NCBI RefSeq assembly: GCF_964030655.1
Contig: NZ_OZ034915.1
Span: 186,001-250,000, forward strand
Source: Spiroplasma endosymbiont of Poecilobothrus nobilitatus
GTDB taxonomy: Bacteria > Bacillota_I > Bacilli_A > Mycoplasmatales > Mycoplasmataceae
DNA: 64,000 nucleotides
Direction: 5' to 3'
The notes under the pieces were generated by a model. The model was given only the letters and a program-made list of their open reading frames with translations. It searched no databases and was not told the DNA's origin. Positions within the stretch are counted from its first letter, which is position 1. Each line of letters starts with the position of its first letter. Positions 15,571-40,138 of the stretch are shown here, piece after piece. Position numbers and translations under genes: made by a program.

Positions 15571-15599
15571 TGGAATGGCAACACTTTTTAGGACACTTT

Positions 15600-16433
15600 T
15601 TATATAGACATTTGTTTTCTAAAAGTAACTGGAGATAAATAATTTAAACTGCCATGAATTCGAATATTGTTATATCAATGCACAAAATCAAAAAATTCGT
15701 ATTTTAATTGTGTTAAATTTTTAAATTTTTTACCCTTAATAAATTCAGTTTTAAAAGTTTTGTAAGTTGTTTCAGCCACAGCATTATCATAAGGGCAGCC
15801 TTTATTGCTTAATGATCTTTTAAAATTAAAAGTTATTAAAATTTCATCAATGATTTTATTTTTAAACTCATTACCACGATCAGTATGAAATAGAGTTATT
15901 TGATTTAATGGCCGTGTTATTTTATGAAAAGCTTGTTGGACCAGTTCGGCTGTTTTATTCGGCCCAGCACTATAACCAATTATTTCACGATTAAACAAGT
16001 CAATTAATAAACAAATATAATGTCATTTAGCGCCAACTTGAACATATGTTAAATCACTAACAATAACTTCATTAGGTTTTTTGTTGTTAAATTGACGATT
16101 TAAAATATTATTAATTTGGTCATTATTGACTGTTGTTTTATGATTATGATATTTTAATTTGGTGTATTTAGAAACCAAATTATTTTTGATCATAAAGAAT
16201 CTGATTTTTCGCCGCGATAAGATGATATCTTTTCTGTTTAAAATAACTTTAATTTTGCGAGCCCCATAAATTTTGCGGCTTTTATTAAAGGTACTGATAA
16301 TTTCTTGTTCATAATTATTAACTTGCTTGTTAATACATTTATTAGTTTGATAATAATACGTTGATTTTGATAAACCCAAAATCTTACATATTTTTCTTAC
16401 TGAATATTTTGTTTTGTTATTAATTATTGTTAT
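15600..16433 (-). CDS. IS3-family transposase OrfB (catalytic subunit)
   Basis: Open throughout with TGA as Trp. It retains GAA where several other copies carry TAA. The DDE core is complete: [16 protein letters not shown] and [15 protein letters not shown]; it ends RKQMSI. It has no start codon of its own with an RBS, as OrfB is normally reached by -1 shifting from OrfA. Since its OrfA is broken, expression is doubtful. Confidence 0.75.
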
Positions 16434-16708
16434 TTTTTGGCCATTATCATTGCGGCTTGCTTTAAAATGTCATTTTCCATTTTCAAGTCTTTAAGTTCTT
16501 TTCGTAAAGTTATTATTTCATTTTCTTCTAGTGTGCGATTGTCTTTTGCTTTAAATGAACCAGAATTATTATAATTTTTAACTCAACTATAAATAGTTGG
16601 TTTTGGTAAATTATATTCTTGCCCTAGATTAATAACACTTTTACCATTTTTATATAGCATGACAATTTGTTTTTTAAATTCTTAAGAGTATGAAGTTTTA
16701 TTTCCCAT
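16430..16708 (-). pseudogene. IS3-family transposase OrfA with early nonsense codon
   Basis: Starts MGNKTSYS, then TAA (complement of 16683-16685) where other copies have GAA. The rest of the frame, including the zipper helix, is intact up to the A6-TAA slippage site. Confidence 0.82.
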
Positions 16709-16789
16709 TTTTATATTCCTTCTTTCTTAATAATTTTATCTAATTTTGAAGTCTATATAATTATGGTCCTAATAATTATAGCCTATCCA

Positions 16790-17225
16790 GATAGTAATAT
16801 GTTGATCTAGCAAATTTCAATGTTTTACATAAATTAATAATTGGATATTTTGCTTTGTTATTTTTAATGATTGCTATTTTTTGCCGATTATCAGTGTTGC
16901 TTGCTTTAAAATGTCATTTTCCATTTCTAATTGTTTAACTTTTTTACGTAATTGAATTAATTCGTTTTCTTCTGGCGTTCTATTGTCTTTAGCTTTAAAT
17001 GAGCCCGAGTTGCTAAATTGGTGAGCTCATTTCCAAACAGTAGATTTACCAATTTGATAATCATTGACTAATTGTTCAGTAGTTTGACCCATTTTGTAAA
17101 GACCAACAATTTGTTGCTTAAATTCATCAGTATAATGATTCTTTGCCATAATTACACCTCCATTGTAGTTTAATTATAAATATTTACTCTACATTATTGT
17201 TGTCCAATTTATCTTAACCCATCCA
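16790..17225 (-). mobile_element. Truncated IS3-type element, second kind (copy 1)
   Basis: The outer end begins (minus strand) TGGATGGGTTAAGATAAATT. It encodes an OrfA of its own and only the first residues of OrfB (NLCKTLKFARSTYYY); the rest was removed where IS3 copy B1 ends. Its protein is clearly related to, but distinct from, the abundant IS3. The same truncation is present at 29965-30400, so it predates the 13.2-kb duplication. Confidence 0.75.
16874..17149 (-). CDS. OrfA of the second IS3-type element
   Basis: 91 aa: [20 protein letters not shown] with the helix-turn-helix to about residue 45, then [19 protein letters not shown] zipper helix, ending GGC AAA AAA TAG, again an A6 slippage site. 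RBS GGAGG just upstream. With OrfB gone it is an orphan DNA-binding protein that might still bind its element's ends. Confidence 0.75.
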
Positions 17226-17511
17226 GTCAATTCATAATTTTATAGATTATTTTTTAACTAAAAATTATATTTTTAAAAGAAGTTGAATTTTTTATAAATT
17301 TTGTTATCATTTAGTCATAAGCGAAACCTAATTTGTTTCTAATTACTTAATTTTATTAAAAACCTAAGAATAATGAATACTACCACATTTTTAGAGTGAG
17401 GATTGAGTTATTCAAATGTTTATGGAAATTTATTGTATAATTTATTTATACATTAATTAGGAAGGATAATATTGTAAGAGTAAAAAACTACTTTTATGTT
17501 AAATTGAAGGG
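17226..17511. other. Upstream region of the hydrolase gene
   Basis: AT-rich, no gene. A TATAAT box (17437-17442) lies 70 bases before the start codon and is the likely -10 element; no good -35 is apparent at normal spacing. A GGAAGG at about 17461 is followed by no ORF of length. Confidence 0.5.
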
Positions 17512-18456
17512 ATGATGAAAATGAAATTTAGAGAATGGAAACATACCTTACGGGATGGCATTGAATTACATATGTATGAATGGAAACCTGATAATGATAA
17601 AAACATTAAGGGGATTGTTCAGCTAGTTCATGGTAGTGCAGAGCATGCTTTTCGTTATGATGATTTTGCCAAATTTTTAGTAGCAAATGATTATGTTGTC
17701 ATTGCTGAAGACCATCGTGGGCATGGGAAAACAGCTCTGTCTTCCGAAGATCTTGGTTTTTTCGCTGAAGAAGAAGGGTGAGAAAAAATTATTGATGACT
17801 TATATGAAGTAACAACTTATATTAAAAAAAGTTATCCAAACCAACCAATTGTAATGTTTGGTCATTCAATGGGTTCTTTTATGATACGTCATTATGCAAT
17901 AAAATATGGCACAAATATTGCAGCATTAGTTATTTGCGGGACAGCACATTACTCAAAACAATTGTTAAAATTTTCAGTTAAAATGGCTAAAATTGAACAA
18001 AAAATGAAAGGATCAAAATCAAAGGATAATTTTATTTATAAATTTTCTTATGCACCATTAAATGCTCGTTATAAAAAAGAGGGTAATTTAGGAACTGAAT
18101 GATTATCAACAGATAAAACAGTTCAAGAAGCTTTTGTAAATGACCCATTAACAGGGCAAGTTTTTTCAACAAGTGCTTTTAAAGATATGTTTACAGGATT
18201 GTTGTTTATTACAAATAAGAAAAATATTAAAAATACACCAGATAACTTGCCATTACTATTTATTGCAGGCGCTGATGATCCGGTTGGAAAATATGGAAAG
18301 ATGGTTATGAAGACTGTTGATTTATATAAAAAGGCAGGAAAAAAAGTTAAAGTCAAATTATATCCAAATGCTCGTCATGAGATTTTGAATGAGCCAATTA
18401 AAAAAGAGATTTATCAAGATATTTTAAATTTTTATAATAAGAGTCTTTTTGTTTAA
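17512..18456 (+). CDS. Alpha/beta hydrolase, lysophospholipase/monoacylglycerol lipase type (unit 1)
   Basis: 314 aa, full length for the serine aminopeptidase S33/lysophospholipase group. Likely cleaves an ester of a membrane lipid. Oxyanion region VQLVHGSAEHAFRY near 42-55, DHRGHGKT near 73-80, nucleophile elbow GHSMG with Ser119, acid Asp256 in GADDPVG, and His289 in NARHE. No signal peptide or TM segment, so cytoplasmic or peripheral. Three in-frame ATGs (17512, 17515, 17521) follow GAAGGG; the first is given. First gene of the duplicated cassette, followed by its own terminator. Unit 2 copy differs at a few residues (L to P near 83, E to K in the KIEQKM segment). Confidence 0.85.
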
Positions 18457-18475
18457 ATAAAAGCAACTTATTTTT

Positions 18476-18511
18476 TTAAAAAACAAGAGTTAGTATCTTG
18501 TTTTTTCTATT
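18476..18511 (+). terminator. Terminator after the hydrolase gene
   Basis: AAAAAACAAGA pairs with TCTTGTTTTTT across GTTAGTA. Confidence 0.75.
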
Positions 18512-18552
18512 TTTTTGCTTTAATATAGTTAGTAAGCAATGAGGAGAGAAAA

Positions 18553-19455
18553 ATGAATTTATTACACGAATGATCAAGTTTTAATATCCTAAATTCAATT
18601 TCATTTTTCTTTAATCCGTTATTGGAACGTATTGCAATAATTTTTCTTACTAATTTTCTTTTATTCTATCTTGTTTTAAAGATTGTAAAATATTTTTTTA
18701 CTATTCGCGCTAGAAAAAATGAAATAAAATCTTTAGCGACAAGATATTTCTTTAGTGCAACTTTTGCTATTAGTGAGTTTATTGTGCTTTTAATTTTACA
18801 AATTATTCTTTTACAAATTTATGCAAGTAAAAGAGATACCAGTATTTATCTTAGCATTGTTTTAGTTTTACAATTTTTTATTGCAATTATTGTCTTAATA
18901 AATAAACAATTTTTAAACTATACTTTAAAATTAGTTATGTTAGTTTTGTTATCATTGTTGTTTTCATTTTTAATAACAAAACAATTGTGAAATTGTTTTT
19001 ATTATATTAATAATAATCATATTTTAGCATTATGATTAATAAAAAATATTTCAATTATTTTTATTATTACATTTTTTTATTTATTTGATTTAAAAACAAC
19101 ATTTTTACATGATTTTGCTTTCCGAATTTTAACTTTCTTAATTTTAATTAGTAATTTTGAAAATGGCTCAGCAGACTTAAAAATTTTAGATCGTTCATTG
19201 TTTTTTAAAATTATTTTAAAAATAATTAAAGTTTTATGTTTATTAGATTTATTTTTCTTAATAAAAACTGCCAAGAAAACAATGAAAAATTTATGACAAA
19301 TTAATGATGATAATTCAATTCAACTTGTTACACTTTTATTATTGTTAAATAATATTCGTTTTTTTAATATCAGTGAAAAAAATGGTTTAGAAAATTTACC
19401 AAATAAATTCTTAAGAAATGAAATTAATGGTTGAAGAGGGATTCTTCAAGAATAA
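18553..19455 (+). CDS. Polytopic membrane protein of unknown function (unit 1)
   Basis: 300 aa. Start ATG 18553 after RBS GAGGAGAG. Six or seven strongly hydrophobic segments (about 25-49, 68-90, 97-115, 122-140, 158-176, 188-200, 218-232), then a polar C-terminal tail of about 60 residues (KTMKNLWQINDDNSIQLVT onward) ending GWRGILQE. No transporter signature recognised. It stands 75 bases ahead of the lipoprotein gene and is kept intact in both copies of the duplication, which argues for a role together with the lipoprotein and FtsX-type permease. Confidence 0.65.
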
Positions 19456-19530
19456 AATAAGAATTAATTTATTTTACTAATTCAATGATTTAGTTATTTA
19501 TTAATTATAAAAAGAAAAGAGATAATAATA

Positions 19531-21723
19531 ATGCGAAAGTTACTTAATATTTTAGCAGCAGCAACTTTAGTAGCAACGCCAGCTCTTACTGCCAGTTGTA
19601 AAACTAAGACAAAATCAGTAGAAGATAAATATAAAGATTCATTAGTTGAAAATTTACCTAATGAACCATTAAAATCAAAAATTTTACAAACAACATTACT
19701 TACAAAACTAACAATTGCGAATCGACATGAAAATTTAAATACATATACACCTTCAATTTTACAAATGTTAATGCGACTACCTGGTTCATATAAAGATAAA
19801 GATGGTAATATTGTTGATATTGATTACTATCGTGGTAAATATTTAAATAAAAATGATGGGATGCCATTAACAACTTTATCATCAAATTATGATTATATGA
19901 ATTTATTAGATAATGAATTATATAATACAGAAAAACAAACTAAGAAAAAAATTCCTGATTATTCTGATGAAGATCCTTTACCAACAATTCCTAATTTAGC
20001 AGAAAATAGTAATATGTTAAATTATTGATTTGATGGAGGACCAATGTCAAGTTATTCAACTGCAAAGGAAATTTTACCAACTAAATGTGATGATAAAAGA
20101 ATTAATCAAAACATTATTGATGCATGTAATAAAGCAATGTTTGAGATGCCGCGCGCAACTTATTTTTATAATTTAAATATGGATTATAATCCGATGGCAA
20201 CAAAAGATATTAAATTTGATACGAGTACAAATCAAAACCTCCTTATTAATAATCAAAAATTTGCGACAGGAGGACCATTTAAAACGGCCCAAAAATCAGA
20301 AGAACAAAATAAATTAGCAATAATTTTACAGTTAATTTCAATGGCGGATATGTTTACAGACCGTTCGCAATCAAAAGCATATATTAATCAATTGAACAAA
20401 TTTTTATCTTTATCAAAAGATAGTGATGTAACATTTATGGGAAGTATTTTAGGAGCTATTTATTATCAGATTTTTGCTTCTCCTAAATTACCTAATGACC
20501 CAACAAAAGAGAATGAAAATTATATTTTTGCAAAATTTGGGGTAACAAAAGCGTTGCAACTTTTAGGTAAAGATAGTAGTGAAAGACAAGCAATTCAGCA
20601 AAAAATTGATGATTTTTTCGCTAAACAATCACAAGTTTTTAGTGATTTATTAGCAGTAAAACCAATGAAACCGGAACTAGACTTAGCTAATCCAGAAGAT
20701 CAATATAAAAATCGCGATGCAATGTGAAATGGTAAAACACCAAACTTAAAATTAGCTGATTTATTGTTTAAAAAAGATGATTCAACAAAATCTTTAGCTG
20801 AATTATTTACTGATTTTGGTGAATATCTTGATGATTTATATACTAAAGCAGATTTAGAACACCAAGAAGAAGCAAATAATTCAATTAGTAGTTTTTTAAC
20901 ACTTGCTGCTAATAAAGTTACTACTGGATTTAAAGTAGTATTACAATCAATGTCAAAAATGATGTTATCAAAATTAGAAGGCGGCTTAGGAACCTTAAGC
21001 GTTAATGATATTAATCGTTTTGTTGTTGCCTTATCAAAAGGAATTTTACAAAGTGCTAATGCGTTAACGGAAGTTAACAAGTTACCATGATCAGAAGCAA
21101 GTGACCAAGAACAAAATCAAACAAAAATTTCACAATTATTAACAGGCAGTGATGACCCATCGACACCAGCAAAAGATTCATTTATGGATTTAGAATTTAC
21201 ATGGTTTAATGATAGTACGCAACCAGTAAGGGCATTATTAAACAAATTATATTTTGATCCAAATTCAGAAACACGAAAAGATTTATTAGCAATTAATAAT
21301 GCTTTATATGACTATTCAAATACTTTATTATTAGGAGCAAATTGAAATATTAGCAATGGTAAATTAGAAGAAAATAAATTATCGTATGACATTGAATACC
21401 AAGGAACAGGTGATGCTGATGTTGCTGCTAATTTAGATTTACATCAAAAATGATATGTTTCAAAAGCAAACATTAAGACTTATCAAGATTTAAATGCAGC
21501 TTATTTAAATGCATTAGGTAATCATGATTTAGATTGATTTATGAAATATGATGGTCTAGGAAATAATTACCAAAAAGTGCATTATAAATATAAAGTAACT
21601 TGAATGAATATTAATCCTGGTGATGATAGTCATCAATATTGAGTAATTTATAATATTCAATGATTTGCAAAAGACAGTAGCGGGCAATGAAAACGTTATT
21701 ATGATGCAATTGAAAATGATTAA
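19531..21723 (+). CDS. Large surface lipoprotein (unit 1)
   Basis: 730 aa. Signal peptide MRKLLNILAAATLVATPALT with lipobox ending ASC; Cys23 would be lipidated and anchor the protein to the outer membrane face. The remainder is polar, Asn/Lys/Asp-rich, with Trp residues encoded by TGA. No known domain recognised. RBS AAAGAG upstream. Followed after 22 bases by the FtsX-type permease, so probably one operon and one surface complex. The unit 2 copy has a Leu codon where this one has TGA (Trp) at 20026. Confidence 0.78.
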
Positions 21724-21745
21724 AAATGGAATATAAGGGCTAAAC

Positions 21746-24700
21746 ATGAAAAAAATATTGTTAATGAAGCAAGGAATTTTAGGAATAATTAAAGCAAAAG
21801 AGCAATTCATTTCATTGCTTCTTTTGATTTTTATTTGTTCAATTATTACTTCTTGTCTATTTACAACGGTCACTAGTTTACAATCAGCAAATCGACAAAT
21901 GGGTTATGGTAGTTTTGAATATAATTATTCATTTCATTGTTCGGCGATGGATTTTGAAAATTCAAATATGCAAACAATTACTCCAAGTTTTGCTTTTGAT
22001 ACAGAATATGTTTTAGTAGAAAACAATGATAATAAATTAACATATCCAAAAATTACAATTGGTGCAGCAGCGACAGATGTTTTTACTGTATTAAAACCAT
22101 CTGATATTAATTTTAAATTAACTAATGGTAAAATTACTAATTTAACATTAAATTTAACATTACGAACAACTGCGCCAAATTATCAAAACTCATTAATAGC
22201 AAAATTACGAGCAATGGGTTATAATGCTTTAGCTGACCAATATTTTAAACTATTTTATACAACGCAAATATATAAAAACTTTTTAGGAATTATTACTGAC
22301 TATATTAATACTAGTTTTTTAAAAAAGCAAAGTAATGCAACAAATGAAAAAATTAAAGTAAGCATTGCTAATTTTATTAATGGAAAAGCAAATTCCGAAC
22401 AGCAAGCAATTGAACGATGAGATTATAATTTAAAAACAGTTGATAATGATTTTAATAAATTTGATATTCCTGATATTACTTTAACGTTGGGAAAACAAGA
22501 TAATAAAACAGTGGTAACTAATATTTTAGAAAATACTTTATTTGAAAAAGGGCTTCGTGGTAGTTTTGGAGTTGCTACTCGTTTTTATGTAATTGATACA
22601 AGTGGAAACAAGGAAACACGAATTCAGTATTTAGCACAATCACCGTGGCAATATATTGATAAATTAAATCAAACAGGGATTAATGAAGCCAGAATGGTTA
22701 TTGGTGACTTATTTAATAAAGTTACTTTTTTTGGTAATTATAGTGAACGAAGTTCTTTTCTTAATTTTGTACAAACTTATTACACAATGTTGGGAGTTGT
22801 TAGCAATTTTGATATTGCAATTCGGCAAGAAGTTACAACTTGAGATATTGCTAATAATTTAAAATATAAAGTAATTGGTTGACATGATTTATTAAAAGAA
22901 GAACAATTAAAGCTTTTTGATAAAGTTAATGAGTGGCCAGGACCATCATTAAATGAATCAATAATTAGCAATTATTATGCTGTTGTTAGTCCTAATTATC
23001 TAAAAGTACATCATAAAAATTTGCATGATAATATACAAATTGGCGAACGAACATTTACAATTGGAGCAACTGGTGGTGATACTTTAAATATTTATCCAAC
23101 TATTTATGAAACTGATTTTATTCCTGATTTTAAAACGGATGTTGTCATTTATCTATCGTCTTATGGAATGTCTTTATTAGCAGAAGATAATAATAAAGGT
23201 TTAATTAGTTTAAAGGATAATTCACGAGTATTCTTAAAAAGTTTAACAAATAAACCAACCAAAAATTTAGCAATTTTTAAAAAATATTATGCAAATAATC
23301 CTAATCAATTAGATTTTTATGTTCAAATGCTAACCAAAAATTCAACGCCACAGGGCAATGATTCTTCAATTGGTGCTTTTGAACCAAAAGAAGTAACAAG
23401 TTCATTAACGCGGCGCTATGATTTATTAGCAAAAACAATTAATGTTTACATTTATATTGGTTTATTCTTCATTATTATTTTTGCCATAACATTATTTGCT
23501 GTTTCATATATTATTATTAAAGAAATGATTAAACGTGAGTCACCACAAATTGGAATGTTAAAAGCTGCTGGCTATTATTTACGTGAAATTGTACTTTCCT
23601 ATTGAAGCATTTTAATGGTTAGTATTTTAATTGCAGTACCAACCGGTTGGTTAGTTGGAATTACCGCCCAATTATTCGTCGTAAAATTATTTAATATGTT
23701 TTTTATAATCAATTGAAGTTTTACTTGAAACTGAATGATTTTTCTTTTCCTAATTGGTTTTTTTGTTATTTTCTTATCATTAATTACTTTTATTACTTGT
23801 TATTTTTCAATTAATAAAACAGAAGTTTTAAGTTTAATTCATCCAATGCGTGAGTTAAAAGTTAATAATAGTTTAGCCCGTACTGTACGTAGTTTTCATT
23901 TTAAAACTTTTGTGGGTCGTTTCCGGATGGTTGTTTTATCAACATCACTAAAACAAGCATTTACTTATTTAGGAATTTTTGCCTTAGTGACATTTACTTT
24001 GACTGTCTCATTATTAGCGCCAGTCTATGCAAAAAATTTTAATACAAATTATTATAAAAACATTAAATATGGTAGTGAAGTTAAATACAGTAATGTCATA
24101 AGTAATAATCCGTTTTCTTATTATAAAACTTATGCATGAAATGGGATTGATAATGTTCCTAATACAACTGATCCAATTGAACAAGATTTATATCCCATTG
24201 GCGGGATGACACCACTAGCAAATTACTATAGTATTGATGGGGGGGCGACAATTAAACCATTAAAAGCGGTGAAACAAGAGCCGACTGTAGCTGGGATCTT
24301 AAAATATATGTTATCTTATAATTTTGTTACTTTATCAGGGACTAATTTATCATTAGGAATTTTTAATTATTTAAATAATTTAGTAAAAAATTATTCGACT
24401 GGCGATAGTGTTAGAGCTTTAGTATCAGGAATTTTATATACCGTATTACCAAAAGCATTAGGAATTGGGGCAATTCCATACCCACCATTTACTGACAAGG
24501 AAGATTATCCTGCATTATGAAGAACATGTTTTAGTAAAGCGACAAATGGAATTATCCCAGCTGCAGTTAAAGAAGATTGAAATAAAAATCCGGATAGAGC
24601 AAATCATTTTGCATTGGGAATTGGAACAATGAGTTATAATCCAACAACTGATGATGTTTTTACTAGTTTTGATGGAACGTATAATAATAAGCAATTTCCT

Positions 24701-26110
24701 GTTTATGGAATTAATCCAAATACAAAAATGTTAAAATTATCATCCGCTGAGCGTGCTATTTTAGCAAATAATGATAGTAAAGTAATTAACGCAATTTCTA
24801 ATGTCACTGCATTACATCGTTTAAATCTTAATGTTGGGGAAGAAATTGAATTAACTCCCGAAGTAACAACATTGCAATATAATACTGGTCAGCATGAATG
24901 AACAGAATTTACTAACAATAATACAGATTTAAAATATCAAAACTGAAAATATAATTTAAGTGGTAACGCTGTTGGATGAAATGTAAATAATTATCAAAGT
25001 TTGTATTCATTAGATAAAAGTTATTTTACTTATAATACAAGTTCACAAACAAAATATTATGTTACTGATGATCGGAAGAGTGAATATCATAATTTAAATA
25101 ATGTTGAATTATGGATTCCAAGGAATTCGACGATTGAAGCAATTTGAAGTAAAAAAACAATTACATTGAGTAATGGTCTTCAACGGATTTTATTAAAAGA
25201 ATTAACAGTTGACGGAAATAAAATTATTCGAAAAGAACGAATTGATAATAAAGAGTACTGAGTTATTAAACCATATGATTTTAGTTTTGGCGGAGCATAT
25301 AGTGGCGATTTTATTGATGGAATTCCAACAACATGATACCAAGCTGCTGTTGATAATAATTTTATTAAAGCAGCACCATCTTTAACACAAAAGCCAGTTA
25401 AAGTTAAAATTGCTAAAAGCATCGCAACTTATGATACACCACGCCTGTTTATTAGTATCAATAATGCTAATCAAATTAATTCATTTCCAATAAATAACAT
25501 TGATAATAATTTAAATATAATGCAATGATACAATGGAAAATATACAACCGAATTACAACCATCTGATCAAATTAATCATTATTCGTTATCATCAACAAAT
25601 GGTGATTTATCATTAAATAATTTCGCGGCTTCTTATAATTCATCTGTTTTGACAGCTGATTATGTTGGTATTAAAGCCAAAATTATGAGTCGGGTTATTA
25701 TCGTTGCCTTATCAGTTGCTTTAATTTTTATTGTCATTATCATTATGGTTTCTGTTATTACAATATATTTTGCAATTGATCTCTTTATTAAAAAGTTTAT
25801 TAAAATTATTGCAACAATGAAAGTGCAAGGTTATAGTCGTTGAGAAATTAATAATTTAACATTAGGAATTTTTATTCCCTTTGCTGTTGTTGGCTGATTA
25901 CTGGGATATTTTATCACTTGAGGTTTAGCATGGACAATTACCCAGCGGATTTTAATGTTCTTTAATTTCTATGTTCCAATTGGAACAGGACTAATTACAT
26001 TACCAATTATCTTAGGAGGAATTATTATTTTATATGTTATCTCGTACTTTATTTCAATGAAAAAAATTAATCAATTAAATATTCAAGAAATTGTTATGAT
26101 GGAAAGTTAA
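21746..26110 (+). CDS. Giant ABC permease with two FtsX-type domains (unit 1)
   Basis: 1454 aa, read with many TGA Trp codons. Topology: short cytoplasmic start (MKKILLMKQGILGIIKAKEQ), TM1 about 22-45, a large extracytoplasmic domain to about 560, a four-helix FtsX/MacB-like block (about 562-790, with KRESPQIGMLKAAGY between helices), a second extracytoplasmic domain to about 1310, and a final FtsX block (about 1312-1450, containing IIATMKVQGYSRWEIN). This matches long lipoprotein-release or export permeases of the FtsX superfamily. No ATPase gene lies in the cassette, so an ATPase must come from elsewhere. RBS AAGGG; operon with the preceding lipoprotein. The unit 2 copy is a pseudogene. Confidence 0.8.
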
Positions 26111-26119
26111 CAGTATTTA

Positions 26120-26153
26120 ATAAAACTATGGTTCTAAACCATAGTTTTATTTT
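26120..26153 (+). terminator. Terminator after the FtsX-type permease (unit 1)
   Basis: AAAACTATGGTT pairs with AACCATAGTTTT around a CTA loop, then T-rich. The unit 2 copy has the loop as TAG, its reverse complement. Confidence 0.8.
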
Positions 26154-26512
26154 AATTCATTAATAGGTTTTAAAAACAGTAATTTATAATGATAAATTAT
26201 ATTTAGATTTTTGGTAGTAATAAAAAAGTTGAGGTTTTACAAAAATATAAATAAAGTAATTAAATATAAATTAAAGTAATCGCTTATCATAGCGATTTTT
26301 TTATTTGCATTATTCATCAGATAATATCTTTAAAATTAAAAATTAACCTATTTTCCCTAAAAATTAGTTAATATTTATAATTTCCTTTCTGTGATTTATT
26401 ATATTTTTTTCGGTTTAACAACTAATAATATCATTTTTAATAAAGGTACTATCTGATGAATAATGCAATATAAAACTTAATATTTTGATGCTTAAAGATG
26501 GATAACTCATCT
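26154..26512. other. Non-coding gap with terminator-like stem and hairpin repeat
   Basis: No gene. About 26213-26260 resembles the left end of the GATAG/CTATC MITE (AGTAATAAAAAAGTTGAGG). At 26278-26302 AATCGCT/AGCGATT with a T-run forms a terminator. At 26307-26466 is the inverted-repeat hairpin, then the shared TTAATATTTTGATGCTTAAA leading to a small ORF. Confidence 0.6.
26307..26466. repeat. Inverted-repeat hairpin element, copy 3
   Basis: Arms GCATTATTCATCAGATAATA and its near-complement ending CTGATGAATAATGC (to 26466) flank a longer AT-rich interior than copies 1 and 2. It stands 47 bases before the start of the 74-codon ORF. Confidence 0.6.
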
Positions 26513-26737
26513 ATGACACGAAGCCTTAAAGAAAGTGCGAAAGCGATTGGATTTACTATCCTATTTATTTCTTTAATTCTCGACAAGATTAATCACTTGT
26601 GAAATGTCAGAGCGCGTGTTTTTTGGCTTGTTTTCATAAAAAGAGTGCTGTTAAACCGAAAAAAACAATATCGGACACTAAAAAAACAAGATAGTTGGAG
26701 CTCCAAAAGGTTATTTTCTTTATATAAAGTTGTCTAG
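26513..26737 (+). CDS. Small hypothetical protein with one TM segment, possibly phage-derived (unit 1)
   Basis: 74 aa from ATG 26513 to TAG 26735. Residues 10-24 are hydrophobic (KAIGFTILFISLILD), followed by a strongly basic tail (KRVLLNRKKQYRTLKKQ). It uses TGG twice as well as TGA for Trp, unlike most neighbours, hinting at foreign origin. The hairpin element upstream and a GC-rich stem downstream accompany it in both copies. No family recognised with confidence; a plectrovirus origin is a guess. Confidence 0.45.
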
Positions 26738-26823
26738 GGATGGATGAAGCGTAATTAATAACTGGGTAAATTTGTTTTACTTCCGTTGGGGGATAAACTC
26801 TGTTTAAATATAGAATTTTAGTA

Positions 26824-26860
26824 TCGCCATACACCTCACTTTGGAGGTGAGTGGTGGCGA
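26824..26860. other. GC-rich two-step hairpin
   Basis: Outer stem TCGCCA (26824-26829) / TGGCGA (26855-26860) and inner stem CACCTC (26832-26837) / GAGGTG (26844-26849). It is the only strongly GC-rich structure in the vicinity. The unit 2 copy keeps both stems while its loop differs, so the structure looks maintained. No T-run, so not a typical terminator. Confidence 0.5.
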
Positions 26861-26959
26861 ATTAAGCTAATTAAATCAAAATATAAATATTCTTACTAAA
26901 TATCAAAATATTAACCAACAAAGGGATTTTCTGTTTATTTAAAAAAATAAAAAGAAAGG

Positions 26960-27014
26960 TGGAATGGCAACACTTTTTAGGACACTTTTTATATGGACAT
27001 TTGTTTTCTAAAAG
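26960..27014 (-). mobile_element. 55-bp end fragment of an IS3 element
   Basis: Carries the TGGAATGGCAACACTTTTTA end and the first bases of the adjoining transposase end, then stops exactly where another IS3 begins (27015) in the opposite orientation. Confidence 0.8.
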
Positions 27015-27095
27015 TGGATAGGCTCCAATTATTAGGACCATAATTATATAGACTTCAAAATTAGATAAAATTATTAAGAAAGAAGGAATATAAAA

Positions 27096-27374
27096 ATGGG
27101 AAATAAAACTTCATACTCTGAAGAATTTAAAAAACAAATTGTCATGCTATATAAAAATGGTAAAAGTGTTATTAATCTAGGGCAAGAATATAATTTACCA
27201 AAACCAACTATTTATAGTTGAGTTAAAAATTATAATAATTCTGGTTCATTTAAAGCAAAAGACAATCGCACACTAGAAGAAAATGAAATAATAACTTTAC
27301 GAAAAGAACTTAAAGACTTGAAAATGGAAAATGACATTTTAAAGCAAGCCGCACTGATAATGGCCAAAAAATAA
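27096..27374 (+). CDS. IS3-family transposase OrfA (unit 1, nested copy)
   Basis: 92 aa, intact helix-turn-helix and zipper helix, ending at the A6-TAA slippage site; its OrfB is split by an insertion, so only OrfA could be produced. Confidence 0.85.
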
Positions 27375-28556: not shown

Positions 28557-28774
28557 AAAATATTCAGTAAGAAAAATATGTAAGATTTTGGGTTTATTAA
28601 AATCAACGTATTATTATCAAACTAATAAATGTATTAACAAGCAAGTTAATAATTATGAACAAGAAATTATCAGTGCCTTTAATAAAACTCGCAAAATTTA
28701 TGGGGCTCGCAAAATTAAAGTTATTTTAAACAGAAAAGATATCATTGGAATGGCAACACTTTTTAGGACACTTT

Positions 28775-29608
28775 TTATATAGACATTTGTTTTCTAAAAG
28801 TAACTGGAGATAAATAATTTAAACTGCCATGAATTCGAATATTGTTATATCAATGCACAAAATAAAAAAGTTCGTATTTTAATTGTGTTAAATTTTTAAA
28901 TTTTTTACCTTTAATAAATTCAGTTTTAAAAATTTTGTAAGTTGTTTCAGCCACAGCATTATCATAAGGGCAGCCTTTATTGCTTAATGATCTTTTAATA
29001 TTAAAAGTTATTAAAATTTCATCAATGATTTTATTTTTAAACTCATTACCACGATCAGTATGAAATAGAGTTATTTGATTTAATGGTCGTGTTATTTTAT
29101 GAAAAGCTTGTTGGACCAGTTCGGCCGTTTTATTCGGACAAGCACTATAACCAATTATTTCACGATTAAACAAGTCAATTAATAAACAAATATAATGTCA
29201 TTTAGCGCCAACTTGAACATATGTTAAATCACTAACAATAACTTCATTAGGTTTTTTGTTGTTAAATTGACGATTTAAAATATTATTAATTTGGTCATTA
29301 TTGACTGTTGTTTTATGATTATGATATTTTAATTTGGTGTATTTAGAAACCAAATTATTTTTGATTATAAAGAATCTGATTTTTCGCCGCGATAAGATGA
29401 TATCTTTTCTGTTTAAAATAACTTTAATTTTGCGAGCCCCATAAATTTTGCGGCTTTTATTAAAGGCACTGATAATTTCTTGTTCATAATTATTAACTTG
29501 CTTGTTAATACATTTATTAGTTTGATAATAATACGTTGATTTTAATAAACCCAAAATATTACATATTTTTCTTACTGAATATTTTGTTTTGTTATTAATT
29601 ATTGTTAT
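28775..29608 (-). CDS. IS3-family transposase OrfB, intact
   Basis: Rve-type catalytic subunit reached by -1 frameshifting from OrfA. SVRKI(C) and [11 protein letters not shown] at the start, then [16 protein letters not shown] and [10 protein letters not shown] supply D, D and E. Differences from the consensus are missense only: SACPNK for SAGPNK, TYKIFK for TYKTFK, ELFYFVH for ELFDFVH. Ends RKQMSI at 28775. Confidence 0.83.
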
Positions 29609-29883
29609 TTTTTGGCCATTATCAGTGCGGCCTGCTTTAAAATGTCATTTTCCATTTTCAAGTCTTTAAGTTCTTTTCGTAAAGTTATTATTTCATTTTC
29701 TTCTAGTGTGCGATTGTCTTTTACTTTAAATGAACCAGAATTATTATAATTTTTAACTCAACTATAAATAGTTGGTTTTGGTAAATTATATTCTTGCCCT
29801 AGATTAATAACACTTTTACCATTTTTATATAGCATGACAATTTGTTTTTTAAATTCTTCAGAGTATGAAGTTTTATTTCCCAT
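29605..29883 (-). CDS. IS3-family transposase OrfA
   Basis: 92 aa, intact, starting [20 protein letters not shown]. The A6-TAA at its end places OrfB in the -1 frame, so OrfAB would span 29883 to 28775. Confidence 0.85.
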
Positions 29884-29964
29884 TTTTATATTCCTTCTTT
29901 CTTAATAATTTTATCTAATTTTGAAGTCTATATAATTATGGTCCTAATAATTATAGCCTATCCA

Positions 29965-30400
29965 GATAGTAATATGTTGATCTAGCAAATTTCAATGTTT
30001 TACATAAATTAATAATTGGATATTTTGCTTTGTTATTTTTAATGATTGCTATTTTTTGTCGATTATCAGTGTTGCTTGCTTTAAAATGTCATTTTCCATT
30101 TCTAATTGTTTAACTTTTTTACGTAATTGAATTAATTCGTTTTCTTCTGGCGTTCTATTGTCTTTAGCTTTAAATGAGCCCGAGTTGCTAAATTGGTGAG
30201 CTCATTTCCAAACAGTAGATTTACCAATTTGATAATCATTGACTAATTGTTCAGGAGTTTGACCCATTTTGTAAGGACCAACAATTTGTTGCTTAAATTC
30301 ATCAGTATAATGATTCTTTGCCATAATTACACCTCCATTGTAGTTTAATTATAAATATTTACTCTACATTATTGTTGTCCAATTTATCTTAACCCATCCA
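29965..30400 (-). mobile_element. Truncated IS3-type element, second kind (copy 2)
   Basis: Duplicate of 16790-17225, same truncation point. Confidence 0.75.
30049..30324 (-). CDS. OrfA of the second IS3-type element (copy 2)
   Basis: 91 aa, as at 16874-17149 with VGPYKM for VGLYKM and a Ser/Thr-region change near residue 23. Orphan OrfA. Confidence 0.73.
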
Positions 30401-30686
30401 GTCAATTCATAATTTTATAGATTATTTTTTAACTAAAAATTATATTTTTAAAAGAAGTTGAATTTTTTATAAATTTTGTTATCATTTAGTCATAAGCGAA
30501 ACCTAATTTGTTTCTAATTACTTAATTTTATTAAAAACCTAAGAATAATGAATACTGCCACATTTTTAGAGTGAGGATTGAGTTATTCAAATGTTTATGG
30601 AAATTTATTGTATAATTTATTTATACATTAATTAGGAAGGATAATATTGTAAGAGTAAAAAACTACTTTTATGTTAAATTGAAGGG

Positions 30687-31631
30687 ATGATGAAAATGAA
30701 ATTTAGAGAATGGAAACATACCTTACGGGATGGCATTGAATTACATATGTATGAATGGAAACCTGATAATGATAAAAACATTAAGGGGATTGTTCAGCTA
30801 GTTCATGGTAGTGCAGAGCATGCTTTTCGTTATGATGATTTTGCCAAATTTTTAGTAGCAAATGATTATGTTGTCATTGCCGAAGACCATCGTGGGCATG
30901 GGAAAACAGCTCCGTCTTCCGAAGATCTTGGTTTTTTCGCTGAAGAAGAAGGGTGAGAAAAAATTATTGATGACTTATATGAAGTAACAACTTATATTAA
31001 AAAAAGTTATACAAACCAACCAATTGTAATGTTTGGTCATTCAATGGGTTCTTTTATGATACGTCATTATGCAATAAAATATGGCACAAATATTGCAGCA
31101 TTAGTTATTTGTGGGACAGCACATTACTCAAAACAATTGTTAAAATTTTCAGTTAAAATGGCTAAAATTAAACAAAAAATGAAAGGATCAAAATCAAAGG
31201 ATAATTTTATTTATAAATTTTCTTATGCACCATTAAATGCTCGTTATAAAAAAGAGGGTAATTTAGGAACTGAATGATTATCAACAGATAAAACAGTTCA
31301 AGAAGCTTTTGTAAATGACCCATTAACAGGGCAAGTTTTTTCAACAAGTGCTTTTAAAGATATGTTTACAGGATTGTTGTTTATTACAAATAAGAAAAAT
31401 ATTAAAAATACACCAGATAACTTGCCATTACTATTTATTGCAGGCGCTGATGATCCGGTTGGAAAATATGGAAAGATGGTTATGAAGACTGTTGATTTAT
31501 ATAAAAAGGCAGGAAAAAAAGTTAAAGTCAAATTATATCCAAATGCTCGTCATGAGATTTTGAATGAGCCAATTAAAAAAGAGATTTATCAAGATATTTT
31601 AAATTTTTATAATAAGAGTCTTTTTGTTTAA
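30687..31631 (+). CDS. Alpha/beta hydrolase (unit 2)
   Basis: 314 aa duplicate of 17512-18456, intact: Ser119 in GHSMG, Asp256, His289 all present. Substitutions include Pro for Leu in HGKTAPSSED and Lys for Glu in KIKQKM. The same upstream TATAAT and the same terminator (31651-31686) accompany it, so it is probably expressed like the unit 1 gene. Confidence 0.84.
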
Positions 31632-31650
31632 ATAAAAGCAACTTATTTTT

Positions 31651-31686
31651 TTAAAAAACAAGAGTTAGTATCTTGTTTTTTCTATT
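31651..31686 (+). terminator. Terminator after the hydrolase gene (unit 2)
   Basis: Same stem as 18476-18511. Confidence 0.75.
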
Positions 31687-31727
31687 TTTTTGCTTTAATA
31701 TAGTTAGTAAGCAATGAGGAGAGAAAA

Positions 31728-32630
31728 ATGAATTTATTACACGAATGATCAAGTTTTAATATCCTAAATTCAATTTCATTTTTCTTTAATCCGTTATTGG
31801 AACGTATTGCAATAATTTTTCTTACTAATTTTCTTTTATTCTATCTTGTTTTAAAGATTGTAAAATATTTTTTTACTATTCGCGCTAGAAAAAATGAAAT
31901 AAAATCTTTAGCGACAAGATATTTCTTTAGTGCAACTTTTGCTATTAGTGAGTTTATTGTGCTTTTAATTTTACAAATTATTCTTTTACAAATTTATGCA
32001 AGCAAAAGAGATACTAGTATTTATCTTAGCATTGTTTTAGTTTTACAATTTTTTATTGCAATTATTGTCTTAATAAATAAACAATTTTTAAACTATACTT
32101 TAAAATTAGTTATGTTAGTTTTGTTCTCATTGTTGTTTTCATTTTTAATAACAAAACAATTGTGAAATTGTTTTTATTATATTAATAATAATCATATTTT
32201 AGCATTATGATTAATAAAAAATATTTCAATTATTTTTATTATTACATTTTTTTATTTATTTGATTTAAAAACAACATTTTTACATGATTTTGCTTTCCAA
32301 ATTTTAACTTTCTTAATTTTAATTAGTAATTTTGAAAATGGCTCAGCAGACTTAAAAATTTTAGATCGTTCATTGTTTTTTAAAATTATTTTAAAAATAA
32401 TTAAAGTTTTATGTTTATTAGATTTATTTTTCTTAATAAAAACTGCCAAGAAAACAATGAAAAATTTATGACAAATTAATGATGATAATTCAATTCAACT
32501 TGTTACACTTTTATTATTGTTAAATAATATTCGTTTTTTTAATATCAGTGAAAAAAATGGTTTAGAAAATTTACCAAATAAATTCTTAAGAAATGAAATT
32601 AATGGTTGAAGAGGGATTCTTCAAGAATAA
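31728..32630 (+). CDS. Polytopic membrane protein (unit 2)
   Basis: 300 aa duplicate of 18553-19455, intact; substitutions seen are Phe for Leu in a TM helix (LVMLVLFSL) and Gln for Arg in HDFAFQIL. Still six or seven TM segments. Confidence 0.65.
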
Positions 32631-32705
32631 AATAAGAATTAATTTATTTTACTAATTCAATGATTTAGTTATTTATTAATTATAAAAAGAAAAGAGATAA
32701 TAATA

Positions 32706-34898
32706 ATGCGAAAGTTACTTAATATTTTATCAGCAGCAACTTTAGTAGCAACGCCAGCTCTTGCTGCTAGTTGTAAAACTAAGACAAAATCAGTAGAAGA
32801 TAAATATAAAGATTCATTAGTTGAAAATTTACCTAATGAACCATTAAAATCAAAAATTTTACAAACAACATTACTTACAAAACTAACAATTGCGAATCGA
32901 CATGAAAATTTAAATACATATACACCTTCAATTTTACAAATGTTAATGCGACTACCTGGTTCATATAAAGATAAAGATGGTAATATTGTTGATATTGATT
33001 ACTATCGTGGTAAATATTTAAATAAAAATGATGGGATGCCATTAACAACTTTATCATCAAATTATGATTATATGAATTTATTAGATAATGAATTATATAA
33101 TACAGAAAAACAAACTAAGAAAAAAATTCCTGATTATTCTGATGAAGACCCTTTACCAACAATTCCTAATTTAGCAGAAAATAGTAATATGTTAAATTAT
33201 TTATTTGATGGAGGACCAATGTCAAGTTATTCAACTGCAAAGGAAATTTTACCAACTAAATGTGATGATAAAAGAATTAATCAAAACATTATCGATGCAT
33301 GTAATAAAGCAATGTTTGAGATGCCGCGCGCAACTTATTTTTATAATTTAAATATGGATTATAATCCGATGGCAACAAAAGATATTAAATTTGATACGAG
33401 TACAAATCAAAACTTCCTTATTAATAATCAAAAATTTGCGACAGGAGGACCATTTAAAACAGCCCAAAAATCAGAAGAACAAGATAAATTAGCAATAATT
33501 TTACAGTTAATTTCAATGGCGGATATGTTTACAGACCGTTCGCAATCAAAAGCATATATTAATCAATTGAACAAATTTTTAGCTTTATCAAAAGATAGTG
33601 ATGTAACATTTATGGGAAGTATTTTAGGAGCTATTTATTATCAGATTTTTGCTTCTCCTAAATTACCTAATGACCCAACAAAAGAAAATGCAAATTATAT
33701 TTTTGCAAAATTTGGGGTAACAAAAGCGTTGCAACTTTTAGGTAAAGATAGTAGTGAAAGACAAGCAATTCAGCAAAAAATTGATGATTTTTTCGCTAAA
33801 CAATCACAAGTTTTTAGTGATTTATTAGCAGTAAAACCAATGAAACCGGAACTAGACTTAGCTAATCCAGAAGATCAATATAAAAATCGCGATGCAATGT
33901 GAAATGGTAAAACACCAAACTTAAAATTAGCTGATTTATTGTTTAAAAAAGATGATTCAACAAAATCTTTAGCTGAATTATTTACTGATTTTGGTGAATA
34001 TCTTGATGATTTATATACTAAAGCAGATTTAGAACACCAAGAAGAAGCAAATAATTCAATTAGTAGTTTTTTAACACTTGCTGCTAATAAAGTTACTCCT
34101 GGATTTAAAGTATTATTACAATCAATGTCAAAAATGATGTTATCAAAATTAGAAGGTGGCTTAGGAACCTTAAGCGTTAATGATATTAATCGTTTTGTTG
34201 TTGCCTTATCAAAAGGAATTTTACAAAGTGCTAATGCGTTAACGGAAGTTAACAAGTTACCATGATCAGAAGCAAGTGACCAAGAACAAAATCAAACAAA
34301 AATTTCACAATTATTAACAGGCAGCGATGACCCATCGACACCAGCAAAAGATTCATTTATGGATTTAGAATTTACATGGTTTAATGATAGTACGCAACCA
34401 GTAAGGGCATTATTAAACAAATTATATTTTGATCCAAATTCAGAAACACGAAAAGATTTATTAGCAATTAATAATGCTTTATATGACTATTCAAATACTT
34501 TATTATTAGGAGCAAATTGAAATATTAGCAATGGTAAATTAGAAGAAAATAAATTATCGTATGACATTGAATACCAAGGAACGGGTGATGCTGATGTTGC
34601 TGCTAATTTAGATTTACATCAAAAATGATATGTTTCAAAAGCAAACATTAAGACTTATCAAGATTTAAATGCAGCTTATTTAAATGCATTAGGTAATCAT
34701 GATTTAGATTGATTTATGAAATATGATGGTCTAGGAAATAATTACCAAAAAGTGCATTATAAATATAAAGTAACTTGAATGAATATTAATCCTGGTGATG
34801 ATAGTCATCAATATTGAGTAATTTATAATATTCAATGATTTGCAAAAGACAGTAGCGGGCAATGAAAACGTTATTATGATGCAATTGAAAATGATTAA
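32706..34898 (+). CDS. Large surface lipoprotein (unit 2)
   Basis: 730 aa duplicate of 19531-21723 with an intact frame. Lipobox now LAASC (unit 1: LTASC), Cys23 unchanged. Leu replaces the TGA-encoded Trp of unit 1 at about residue 166; other scattered changes include NENY to NANY and FLSL to FLAL. The frame remains open although the permease after it is destroyed, so this paralogue may act with the unit 1 permease or on its own. Confidence 0.78.
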
Positions 34899-34920
34899 AA
34901 ATGGAATATAAGGGCTAAAC

Positions 34921-37900: not shown

Positions 37901-39290
37901 TACAAAAATGTTAAAATTATCATCCGCTGAGCGTGCTATTTTAGCAAATAATGATAGCAAAGTAATTAACGCAATTTCTAATGTCACTGCATTACATCGT
38001 TTAAATCTTAATGTTGGGGAAGAAATTGAATTAACTCCCGAAGTAACAACATTGCAATATAATACTGGTCAGCATGAATGAACAGAATTTACTAACAATA
38101 ATACAGATTTAAAATATCAAAACTGAAAATATAATTTAAGTGGTAACGCTGTTGGATGAAATGTAAATAATTATCAAAGTTTGTATTCATTAGATAAAAG
38201 TTATTTTACTTATAATACAAGTTCACAAACAAAATATTATGTTACTGATGATCGGAAGAGTGAATATCATAATTTAAATAATGTTGAATTATGGATTCCA
38301 AGGAATTCGACGATTGAAGCAATTTGAAGTAAAAAAACAATTACATTGAGTAATGGTCTTCAACCGATTTTATTAAAAGAATTAACAGTTGACGGAAATA
38401 AAATTATTCGAAAAGAAATAATTGATAATAAAGAGTACTGAGTTATTAAACCATATGATTTTAGTTTTGGTGGAGCATATAGTGGCGATTTTATTGATGG
38501 AATTCCAACAACATGATACCAAGCTGCTGTTGATAATAATTTTATTAAAGCAGCACCATCTTTAACACAAAGGCCAGTTAAAGTTAAAATTGCTAAAAGC
38601 ATTGCAACTTATGATACACCACGCCTGTTTATTAGTATCAATAATGCTAATCAAATTAATTCATTTCCAATAAATAACATTGATAATAATTTAAATATAA
38701 TGCAATGATACAATGGAAAATATACAACCGAATTACAACCATCTGATCAAATTAATCATTATGCGTTATCATCAACAAATGGTGATTTATCATTAAATAA
38801 TTTCACGACTTCTTATAATTCATCTGTTTTGACAGCTGATTATGTTGGTATTAAAGCCAAAATTATGAGTCGGGTTATTATCGTTGCCTTATCAGTTGCT
38901 TTAATTTTTATTGTCATTATCATTATGGTTTCTGTTATTACAATATATTTTGCAATTGATCTCTTTATTAAAAAGTTTATTAAAATTATTGCAACAATGA
39001 AAGTACAAGGTTATAATCGTTGAGAAATTAATAATTTAACATTAGGAATTTTTATTCCCTTTGCTGTTGTTGGCTGATTACTGGGATATTTTATCACTCG
39101 AGGTTTAGCATGGACAATTACCCAGCGGATTTTAATGTTCTTTAATTTCTATGTTCCAATTGGAACAGGACTAATTACATTACCAATTATCTTAGGAGGA
39201 ATTATTATTTTATATGTTATCTCGTACTTTATTTCAATGAAAAAAATTAATCAATTAAATATTCAAGAAATTGTTATGATGGAAAGTTAA
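34921..39290 (+). pseudogene. Giant FtsX-type permease (unit 2), decayed
   Basis: Duplicate of 21746-26110 with at least five disabling changes relative to unit 1: GAA to TAA at 35092-35094, one extra G at about 35237, a two-base CA gain at about 36119, GAA to TAA at 36559-36561, and a G7 to G9 run at about 37417-37425. Long stretches remain readable in each frame, including the last FtsX block at 38829-39290. The loss affects only this gene of the cassette. Confidence 0.88.
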
Positions 39291-39298
39291 CAGTATTT

Positions 39299-39333
39299 AA
39301 TAAAACCATGGTTTAGAACCATAGTTTTATTTT
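39299..39333 (+). terminator. Terminator after the decayed permease (unit 2)
   Basis: Same stem as 26120-26153 apart from one T-to-C change in the left arm; loop TAG rather than CTA. Confidence 0.78.
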
Positions 39334-39486
39334 AATTCATTAATAGGTTTTAAAAACAGTAATTTATAATGATAAATGATATTTAGATTTTTGGTAGTAA
39401 TAAAAAAGTTGAGGTTTTACAAAAATATAAATAAAGTAATTAAATATAAATTAAAGTAATCGCTTATCATAGCGATTTTTTTATTT

Positions 39487-39645
39487 GCATTATTCATCAG
39501 ATAATATCTTTAAAATTAAAAATTAACCTATTTTCCCTAAAAATTAGTTAATATTTATAATTTCCTTTCTGTGATTTATTATATTTTTTCGGTTTAACAA
39601 CTAATAATATCATTTTTAATAAAGGTACTATCTGATGAATAATGC
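39487..39645. repeat. Inverted-repeat hairpin element, copy 4
   Basis: Duplicate of 26307-26466 with one T fewer in the interior. Confidence 0.6.
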
Positions 39646-39691
39646 AATCTAAGACTTAATATTTTGATGCTTAAAGATGGATAACTCATCT

Positions 39692-39916: not shown

Positions 39917-40138
39917 GGGTGGATGAAGCGTAATTAATAACTGGGTAAATTTGTTTTACTTCCGTTGGGGGATAAACTCTGTTTAAATATAGAATTTTAG
40001 TATCGCCATACACCTCGATTTGGAGGTGGGTGGTGGCGAATTAAGCTAATTAAATCAAAATATAAATATTCTTACTAAATATCAAAATATTAACCAACAA
40101 AGGGATTTTCTGTTTATTTAAAAAAATAAAAAGAAAGG

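What the first reader, a model, noticed from the sequence alone, without database searches (positions are those of the whole stretch)
17512..26110. Uncharacterised cassette: lipase-like hydrolase, polytopic protein, 730-aa lipoprotein, 1454-aa double-FtsX permease, no ATPase
Four genes in fixed order with short spacing between the last three. A lipoprotein directly followed by an FtsX-superfamily permease suggests a surface machine for lipoprotein or lipid handling, and a lipid-acting hydrolase next door fits. No ABC ATPase is encoded with it, so it must borrow one or work without. The whole cassette has been duplicated, suggesting dosage once mattered.
Basis: partly seen in the sequence, partly recalled or inferred. 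Interest (0 to 1): 0.65.

Follow-up and report, generated by a model that had tools for sequence, protein, structure and literature searches.

The report
Membrane machine sharing one distant ATPase
A wall-less bacterium (Spiroplasma) carries several surface machines, each built around a giant membrane protein, usually with a lipoprotein and a small membrane protein, and all of them appear to be driven by one engine protein encoded elsewhere in the genome, which explains the missing engine gene and gives a simple test of what these unstudied machines do.

Summary
The four genes are real. The functional unit is a three-gene operon, polytopic protein – lipoprotein – 1454-aa tandem FtsX permease, closed by a terminator-like hairpin. 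The hydrolase is a separate, dispensable transcription unit. The permease is a Type VII (MacB/LolC/FtsX) permease, apparently fused 4+4 TM. The puzzle 'no ATPase' is probably solved: five FtsX-permease loci in this genome (one of them duplicated, with a broken copy) have no ATPase beside them, but the genome has exactly one MacB/LolD/BceA-type ATPase, alone between hslO and dusB-lysS. In sister genomes that same ATPase gene is flanked by FtsX permeases of two different classes. Across Mollicutes there is nearly always one such ATPase, against 3–12 permeases in this family. So one shared ATPase most likely powers them all, as MceG does for Mce transporters. An unexpected signature links the polytopic subunits: families that cannot be aligned end in ING[WY][KRM]-x5-COOH at exactly the same distance from the C-terminus; elsewhere in this genome no protein of 100 aa or more was found with it. 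The duplication is real, unique to this genome and IS-associated; its second permease is broken, so a dosage role is not supported. Substrate is unknown; models were low-confidence.

The parts
17512..18456 (+). alpha/beta hydrolase (Hydrolase_4, monoglyceride-lipase-like, GHSMG at residue 117, no signal peptide); neighbour, not part of the operon
18478..18506 (+). terminator-like hairpin with T tail between hydrolase and operon
   Evidence: z -4.3; similar hairpin in relatives
18553..19455 (+). polytopic protein (about 6 TM by hydropathy), first gene of the operon
19423..19452 (+). C-terminal tag INGWRGILQE, shared in position with otherwise unalignable polytopic subunits
19531..21723 (+). 730-aa lipoprotein (MRKLLNILAAATLVATPALTASC signal); first ~175 aa homologous to the module-B lipoprotein
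21746..26110 (+). 1454-aa tandem FtsX (Type VII ABC) permease, about 8 TM (4+4), two large extracytoplasmic domains
23465..23812 (+). first FtsX domain of the permease (coupling-loop motif QIGMLKAAGY)
25724..26080 (+). second FtsX domain of the permease (coupling-loop motif KIIATMKVQGYSRWEIN)
26119..26151 (+). terminator-like hairpin closing the operon
   Evidence: z -8.1
15571..27126 (+). first unit of the tandem duplication (IS3-flanked)
28746..40306 (+). second unit of the tandem duplication, 98.9% identical
30687..31631 (+). hydrolase, copy 2 (intact)
31728..32630 (+). polytopic protein, copy 2 (intact)
32706..34898 (+). lipoprotein, copy 2 (intact)
34921..39290 (+). permease, copy 2: pseudogene, indels near 35236, 36118, 37417 and a stop at 35092

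Best explanation
The operon encodes the membrane and surface parts of a Type VII ABC (mechanotransmission) machine. The permease is a single chain that fuses two MacB/LolC-type half-permeases; each has one TM, a large extracytoplasmic domain and three TM. It should bind two copies of one ATPase at its two cytoplasmic coupling loops. That ATPase is most likely the genome's only MacB/LolD/BceA-type ATPase (G000:C1:19684-20622, 313 aa), which serves all five FtsX permease loci. ATP binding and hydrolysis move the extracytoplasmic domains, and the adjacent lipoprotein, anchored in the outer leaflet, is the dedicated surface partner that sets what the machine does (extracting or presenting a lipid, lipoprotein or peptide). 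The polytopic subunit accompanies the permease and carries a fixed C-terminal peptide, perhaps a docking tag. Shown: gene structure, FtsX identity, conservation of the triad, uniqueness of the ATPase, its linkage to permeases in relatives, purifying selection, the tag. Inferred: physical pairing, mechanotransmission, lipoprotein as partner. Unknown: substrate.
For: Two FtsX domains. The permease-half model, although poor, has MacB and YbbAP as its only PDB fold matches below E 0.001, followed by YtrEF, LolCDE, HrtBA and BceAB. All ABC ATPase places of the genome were read and only one is MacB/LolD/BceA type. It is solitary here. In G001 and G013 it sits in an array with one permease of class C upstream and one of class D-like downstream; in G003, G006, G010 and G011 a permease follows it (tree). 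Order-wide, 117 of 119 genomes have this ATPase, usually one copy; in family f1, 28 of 31 genomes have exactly one against 6-25 FtsX domains. In 13 of 16 single-permease mollicutes that could be checked, the permease lies within 3.5 kb of the ATPase. The ATPase is conserved even where no permease is left beside it (91-97% identity; dN/dS about 0.06-0.18 in most pairs, 0.23 and 0.39 in two very close ones). Triad in the same order in 7 other genomes. The module-B triad (30% permease) has the same gene order in this genome and in most relatives read.
Against: No physical or genetic data. Permease and ATPase genes are about 186 kb apart in this genome. The models of lipoprotein (pLDDT 40) and permease half (pLDDT 50) are poor. 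The lipoprotein could have an independent function. Other ABC ATPases cannot be excluded as partners by sequence alone.
Confidence: 0.68

Rival explanations
1. The permease works without any ATPase, as a structural or sensory surface protein, and its FtsX domains are relics.
For: No ATPase gene next to any of the five permease loci of this genome.
Against: Residues of both coupling-loop motifs are invariant across the aligned class A and B permeases and relatives (G603, L605, K606, A607, G609; A1356, G1362, Y1363, E1367). Permease dN/dS 0.17-0.28. An orthologous ATPase sits between permeases in sister genomes.
Confidence: 0.1
2. YbbAP-TesA-like lipid hydrolase complex: the permease extracts lipids and the neighbouring hydrolase cleaves them.
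For: Hydrolase is lipase-like and sits beside a fused two-domain Type VII permease; YbbAP-TesA is a precedent (PMC12646458).
Against: TesA is periplasmic, whereas this hydrolase has no signal peptide and would be cytosolic. A conserved terminator-like hairpin separates it from the operon. It is decayed or truncated in G002, G004 and G009 although the triad is intact. Modules B and C have no hydrolase.
Confidence: 0.08
3. LolCDE-like lipoprotein release machine whose client is the adjacent lipoprotein itself, shedding or relocating it at the cell surface.
For: Lipoprotein gene lies 22 nt upstream of the permease, with a class-specific lipoprotein in modules A and B; Type VII members extract lipoproteins (PMC5985334).
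Against: No outer membrane; no LolA-like acceptor was sought or found. A dedicated lipoprotein per permease fits a partner at least as well as a client.
Confidence: 0.2
4. Each permease uses a different resident ATPase (ECF, PotA, ABC-2 or MsbA-like) by cross-talk.
For: An MsbA-like ABC exporter lies upstream of the cassette in six of the seven relatives.
Against: That exporter carries its own TM domain, and its orthologue lies at about 851 kb in this genome. The other ATPases examined are assigned to other families or have their own permeases. None is MacB/LolD type.
Confidence: 0.06

Closest known systems
Type VII ABC transporters in general (MacB, LolCDE, FtsEX, BceAB, YbbAP; PMC5985334)
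   Same: FtsX domains, TM1-large extracytoplasmic domain-TM2-4 pattern, fold matches, MacB/LolD-type ATPase in the genome
   Different: ATPase not encoded with the permease and apparently shared by several permeases; two half-permeases fused with no interceding TM pair visible by hydropathy; accompanied by a large lipoprotein and a tagged polytopic protein
E. coli YbbAP-TesA (PMC12646458; 9GE6-9GE8)
   Same: Two permease units and two extracytoplasmic domains in one chain; Foldseek match E 1.8e-4
   Different: YbbP has 10 TM and a periplasmic GDSL esterase; here about 8 TM, and the neighbouring hydrolase looks cytosolic, is S33-type and dispensable
MceG, shared ATPase of Mce1 and Mce4 (PMC9947336)
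   Same: One unlinked ATPase serves several multi-subunit transporters encoded elsewhere
   Different: Different ABC type (Mce lipid importers), no relation to FtsX permeases; sharing shown there by experiment, inferred here
FtsX-like permeases of the minimal cell JCVI-syn3.0 (MMSYN1_0034, 0399, 0531, 0639; PMC6629657)
   Same: Several uncharacterised FtsX-like permeases in a mollicute
   Different: Only classed as FtsX-like there; no shared ATPase or tag in the passages read

Membership tests
Type VII ABC transporter (FtsX/MacB superfamily) | FtsX permease domain(s) | tested here: met
   PF02687 52.6 bits vs cut-off 25.5, two stretches; both domains over the cut-off in the genome scan
Type VII ABC transporter (FtsX/MacB superfamily) | TM1 - large extracytoplasmic domain - three further TM, per half | tested here: met
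   Hydropathy: TM at 21 | 573, 622, 665 and 742 | 1317, 1372, 1414, with weak extra peaks at 892 and 1337; same pattern in classes B-E. Hydropathy only
Type VII ABC transporter (FtsX/MacB superfamily) | Porter-type extracytoplasmic fold | tested here: inconclusive
   Matches isolated MacB, LolE and YknZ domains at Z 8.2-8.6, but on a model of mean pLDDT 50
Type VII ABC transporter (FtsX/MacB superfamily) | Partner ATPase of MacB/LolD/BceA type | tested here: inconclusive
   Exactly one in the genome, linked to FtsX permeases in relatives; physical pairing not testable here
LolCDE | LolD equivalog ATPase, separate LolC and LolE chains | tested here: not met
   TIGR02211 206 bits vs cut-off 308; the permease is one fused chain
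YbbAP-TesA | 10 TM with two linking TM between halves | tested here: inconclusive
   Hydropathy gives 8 TM in classes B-E; class A shows 10 peaks, two of them weak; no topology predictor available
YbbAP-TesA | Extracytoplasmic hydrolase partner | tested here: not met
   Hydrolase has no signal peptide, is a separate unit and is lost in relatives
BceAB | One extracytoplasmic domain only, linked to a two-component system | tested here: not met
   Two large extracytoplasmic domains; no kinase gene seen next to the loci
FtsEX | FtsE equivalog and short FtsX | tested here: not met
   TIGR02673 183 bits vs cut-off 265; permease 1454 aa
MacAB | ATPase fused to the permease, with a MacA adaptor | tested here: not met
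   Permease has no NBD; no adaptor gene adjacent

The most novel reading that the evidence does not exclude
A one-engine, many-heads surface system: one Type VII ATPase powers a set of interchangeable permease-lipoprotein heads, and the polytopic subunit recruits or holds the shared ATPase (or the permease) through a C-terminal decapeptide tag, ING[WY][KRM]-x5, kept at an exact distance from the C-terminus in families that otherwise share no alignable sequence.
Probability: 0.3. Interest if true: 0.78.

Novelty: new variant of a known kind. Interest (0 to 1): 0.57.

Why it matters
FtsX-like permeases are among the largest uncharacterised proteins of Mollicutes, and four were kept in the minimal cell JCVI-syn3.0 (PMC6629657), so what powers them and what they do is an open question. 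If a single ATPase energises them all, one depletion experiment would reveal the clients and the function of the whole set. A shared ATPase is established for Mce transporters but, in the literature I could search, not for Type VII systems. The C-terminal tag gives a sequence handle for finding components that homology misses; a family-wide search with it pointed to two further polytopic-lipoprotein gene pairs in a sister genome.

Tried and rejected
Structure of the lipoprotein: AlphaFold with 5 sequences gave pLDDT 40 and no Foldseek match, not used. A whole-permease model was impossible (length limit); half 1 reached pLDDT 50. Sequence search of PDB with the permease: none; profile only LolF at E 0.28. 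Lipoprotein profile vs PDB: nothing. A weak Pfam MHB haemophore match to the lipoprotein (19.9 bits, below its cut-off) was rejected as chance. Whole-length homology between polytopic families A, B and D: not detected by hhalign; only the C-terminus lines up. Labels in the output are shifted by a script error ('FTSX_A' there is lipoprotein A, 'LPP_B' is permease B, 'LPPdn_C' is permease C); read accordingly. S. citri lipoprotein expression paper (PMC4804543): the main text could not be matched to these genes. Hydrolase as functional partner and duplication for dosage: rejected for the reasons given.
Full report
WHAT IS THERE. The window is bases 186001-250000 of a 1.434-Mb single-contig genome that uses code 4. 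Close relatives of the cassette are in named Spiroplasma records: S. phoeniceum 93%, S. poulsonii 76% for the permease. Gene 1 is an alpha/beta hydrolase of the Hydrolase_4/S33 type, closest among solved proteins to alpha/beta hydrolases and monoglyceride lipases, with GHSMG at residue 117 and no signal peptide. Gene 2 is a 300-aa polytopic protein with no family match. Gene 3 is a 730-aa lipoprotein with no family above cut-off. Gene 4 is a 1454-aa permease with two FtsX domains.

THE UNIT IS THREE GENES, NOT FOUR. A hairpin with a T tail follows the hydrolase (18478-18506, z -4.3). A similar hairpin lies at the same place in most relatives that have the locus, with changed stem sequence in G010 and G011, and it is weak in G007. 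A strong hairpin closes the operon after the permease (26119-26151, z -8.1), with hairpins in similar positions in relatives. The order polytopic-lipoprotein-permease is kept in all seven other genomes with an orthologous permease (G002, G004, G005, G007, G009, G010, G011). The hydrolase is a 70-aa remnant in G004, short fragments in G002 and truncated in G009. In six of these seven relatives an MsbA-like ABC exporter lies upstream; in this genome its orthologue (91%) lies at about 851 kb, so the neighbourhood has been rearranged, with IS3 copies now next to the cassette.

THE PERMEASE IS A TYPE VII PERMEASE. Hydropathy gives TM1, a ~530-aa extracytoplasmic stretch, TM2-4, a basic ~55-aa linker, TM5, a ~550-aa stretch, TM6-8; classes B, C, D and E of the same genome give 8 TM each. 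The script also counts two weaker peaks in class A (892, 1337), so 8 rather than 10 is a judgement. A low-confidence model of the first half (pLDDT 50) nevertheless has MacB, YbbAP, YtrEF, LolCDE, HrtBA and BceAB as its top Foldseek matches (three with E below 0.001, all MacB or YbbAP), and its extracytoplasmic part aligns with isolated MacB, LolE and YknZ domains at Z 8.2-8.6. The review of the family describes fused permeases with two interceding TM helices (PMC5985334); an 8-TM direct fusion would be a further arrangement.

FIVE PERMEASE LOCI, NO ADJACENT ATPASE. Besides this cassette (A), the genome has: module B at 1367.6-1375 kb next to rplL and rplJ, again polytopic-lipoprotein-permease (286, 777, 1415 aa); module C at 475.6-483 kb, lipoprotein-polytopic-permease-lipoprotein (537, 248, 1363, 319 aa); D, 1066 aa, near pheS-pheT; and E, 1165 aa, at 1389.7-1393.2 kb. 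None has an ABC ATPase beside it. Lipoproteins A and B are homologous over their first ~175 residues (hhalign probability 99.5, E 3e-23).

THE PROBABLE ATPASE. All places matching the ABC ATPase family were listed and read. They include PotA, PstB, SufC (scored) and, by reading, ECF, sugar-type, ABC-F, UvrA, exporters with their own TM domains, ABC-2 types, and fragments. Only one, at C1:19684-20622, is of MacB/LolD/BceA type (best PDB relatives BceA, MJ0796, MacB, YbbA, LolD; it matches LolD, MacB and DevA models below their cut-offs). Its catalytic motifs look intact and it has a ~75-residue N-terminal extension. It stands alone between hslO and dusB-lysS. In all 14 genomes of the genus there is one orthologue (86-100% identity), next to hslO/ftsH or lysS wherever it was read. 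In G001 and G013 the order is hslO - small polytopic - class C permease - lipoprotein - ATPase - class D-like permease - one gene - lysS; in G010, G011, G006 and G003 the ATPase is followed by a polytopic protein and a permease; in G009 that permease is split and an IS lies between. In the group of this genome no permease is left there, yet the ATPase is kept (91-97%, low dN/dS). A tree of 41 permeases separates the classes, and the two permeases flanking the ATPase in G001 and G013 belong to different classes, so the same ATPase is linked to two classes at once.

ORDER-WIDE PATTERN. 117 of 119 genomes have the ATPase at E 1e-42 or better, usually once. In the family of this genome 28 of 31 sampled genomes have exactly one, against 6-25 FtsX domains (median 12). 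In other families two FtsX domains, meaning one permease, are common, and in 13 of the 16 such genomes whose hits were printed the domain lies within 3.5 kb of the ATPase (the printed list was truncated by E-value). The simplest reading is an ancestral ATPase-permease pair, with permeases multiplied and the ATPase left single.

THE TAG. Polytopic families A, B and the one beside the ATPase cannot be aligned over their length. Yet among 709 distinct proteins in the fetched loci, 24 have NG[WYF][KRQM] within the last 20 residues, and all 24 are these polytopic proteins, with the tag ending five residues before the C-terminus. Many of the 24 are orthologues of each other; they represent about four families. 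In the 1.43-Mb genome the coded pattern ING[WY][KR] near the end of a protein of 100 aa or more occurs only in polytopic A (both copies) and B. Over 60 genomes of the family, in-frame tags in real proteins among the loci checked were again only such proteins, each followed by a lipoprotein or permease gene. Two loci found this way in G003 are a polytopic-lipoprotein pair just upstream of a second one, and a pair at 612-615.2 kb with no permease after it. Class C polytopic proteins lack the tag, so it is not universal. A fixed distance from the C-terminus suggests a docking peptide; that is inference.

THE DUPLICATION. 15571-27126 and 28746-40306 are 98.9% identical, bordered by IS3 copies. Substitutions are spread over both copies (33 derived in A, 49 in B), and all three indels are derived in copy B and lie in the permease. 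Orthologues in the other genomes are single. This looks like IS-associated amplification followed by decay of one permease, not a selected dosage increase.

MECHANISM AND LIMITS. Type VII systems turn cytoplasmic ATP hydrolysis into movement outside the membrane and are defined by their extracytoplasmic partner (PMC5985334; PMC12646458). The lipoprotein 22 nt upstream of the permease is the natural candidate for that partner. MceG shows that one unlinked ATPase can serve and stabilise several transporters (PMC9947336). Pairing, mechanism and substrate were not tested experimentally.

Noticed in passing
L136:6048-9177 (G003:C1 about 612.0-615.2 kb): A tagged polytopic gene and a 767-aa lipoprotein gene with no permease gene after them: an orphan polytopic-lipoprotein pair, possibly an extra head for a permease elsewhere.
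   Followed up: partly
window 1-1860 and 4812-6671: A 99.9% identical repeat with an IS3-type transposase flanks an ABC-2-like permease-ATPase gene pair (2154-5019); the same ATPase appears again upstream of the window at C1:185321, so that pair is tandemly duplicated too.
   Followed up: no
window 52672-54018: An ABC ATPase followed by a truncated membrane part whose last ~30 residues look like an IS3 transposase OrfA end: probably an IS-generated fusion.
   Followed up: no
window 10501-11838: Three overlapping ORFs in different frames that read like pieces of one gene (TrmFO-like by eye) between valS and an aldehyde dehydrogenase: probably a frameshifted gene.
   Followed up: no
L034:7173-9643 (C1 about 1379.2-1381.6 kb): A 423-aa polytopic protein next to a 394-aa lipoprotein a few kb from module B: possibly a further surface module.
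   Followed up: no
L033:7685-8626 (C1:19684-20625): The shared-ATPase candidate has a ~75-residue charged N-terminal extension, partly conserved across several Mollicute families (matches from query residue ~20-40 on): a possible docking element.
   Followed up: partly
L140 (G007:C1 about 1731.8 kb): Only a 50-aa end of the module-B polytopic gene with its tag was found in frame in S. phoeniceum P40, suggesting module B has decayed there.
   Followed up: no
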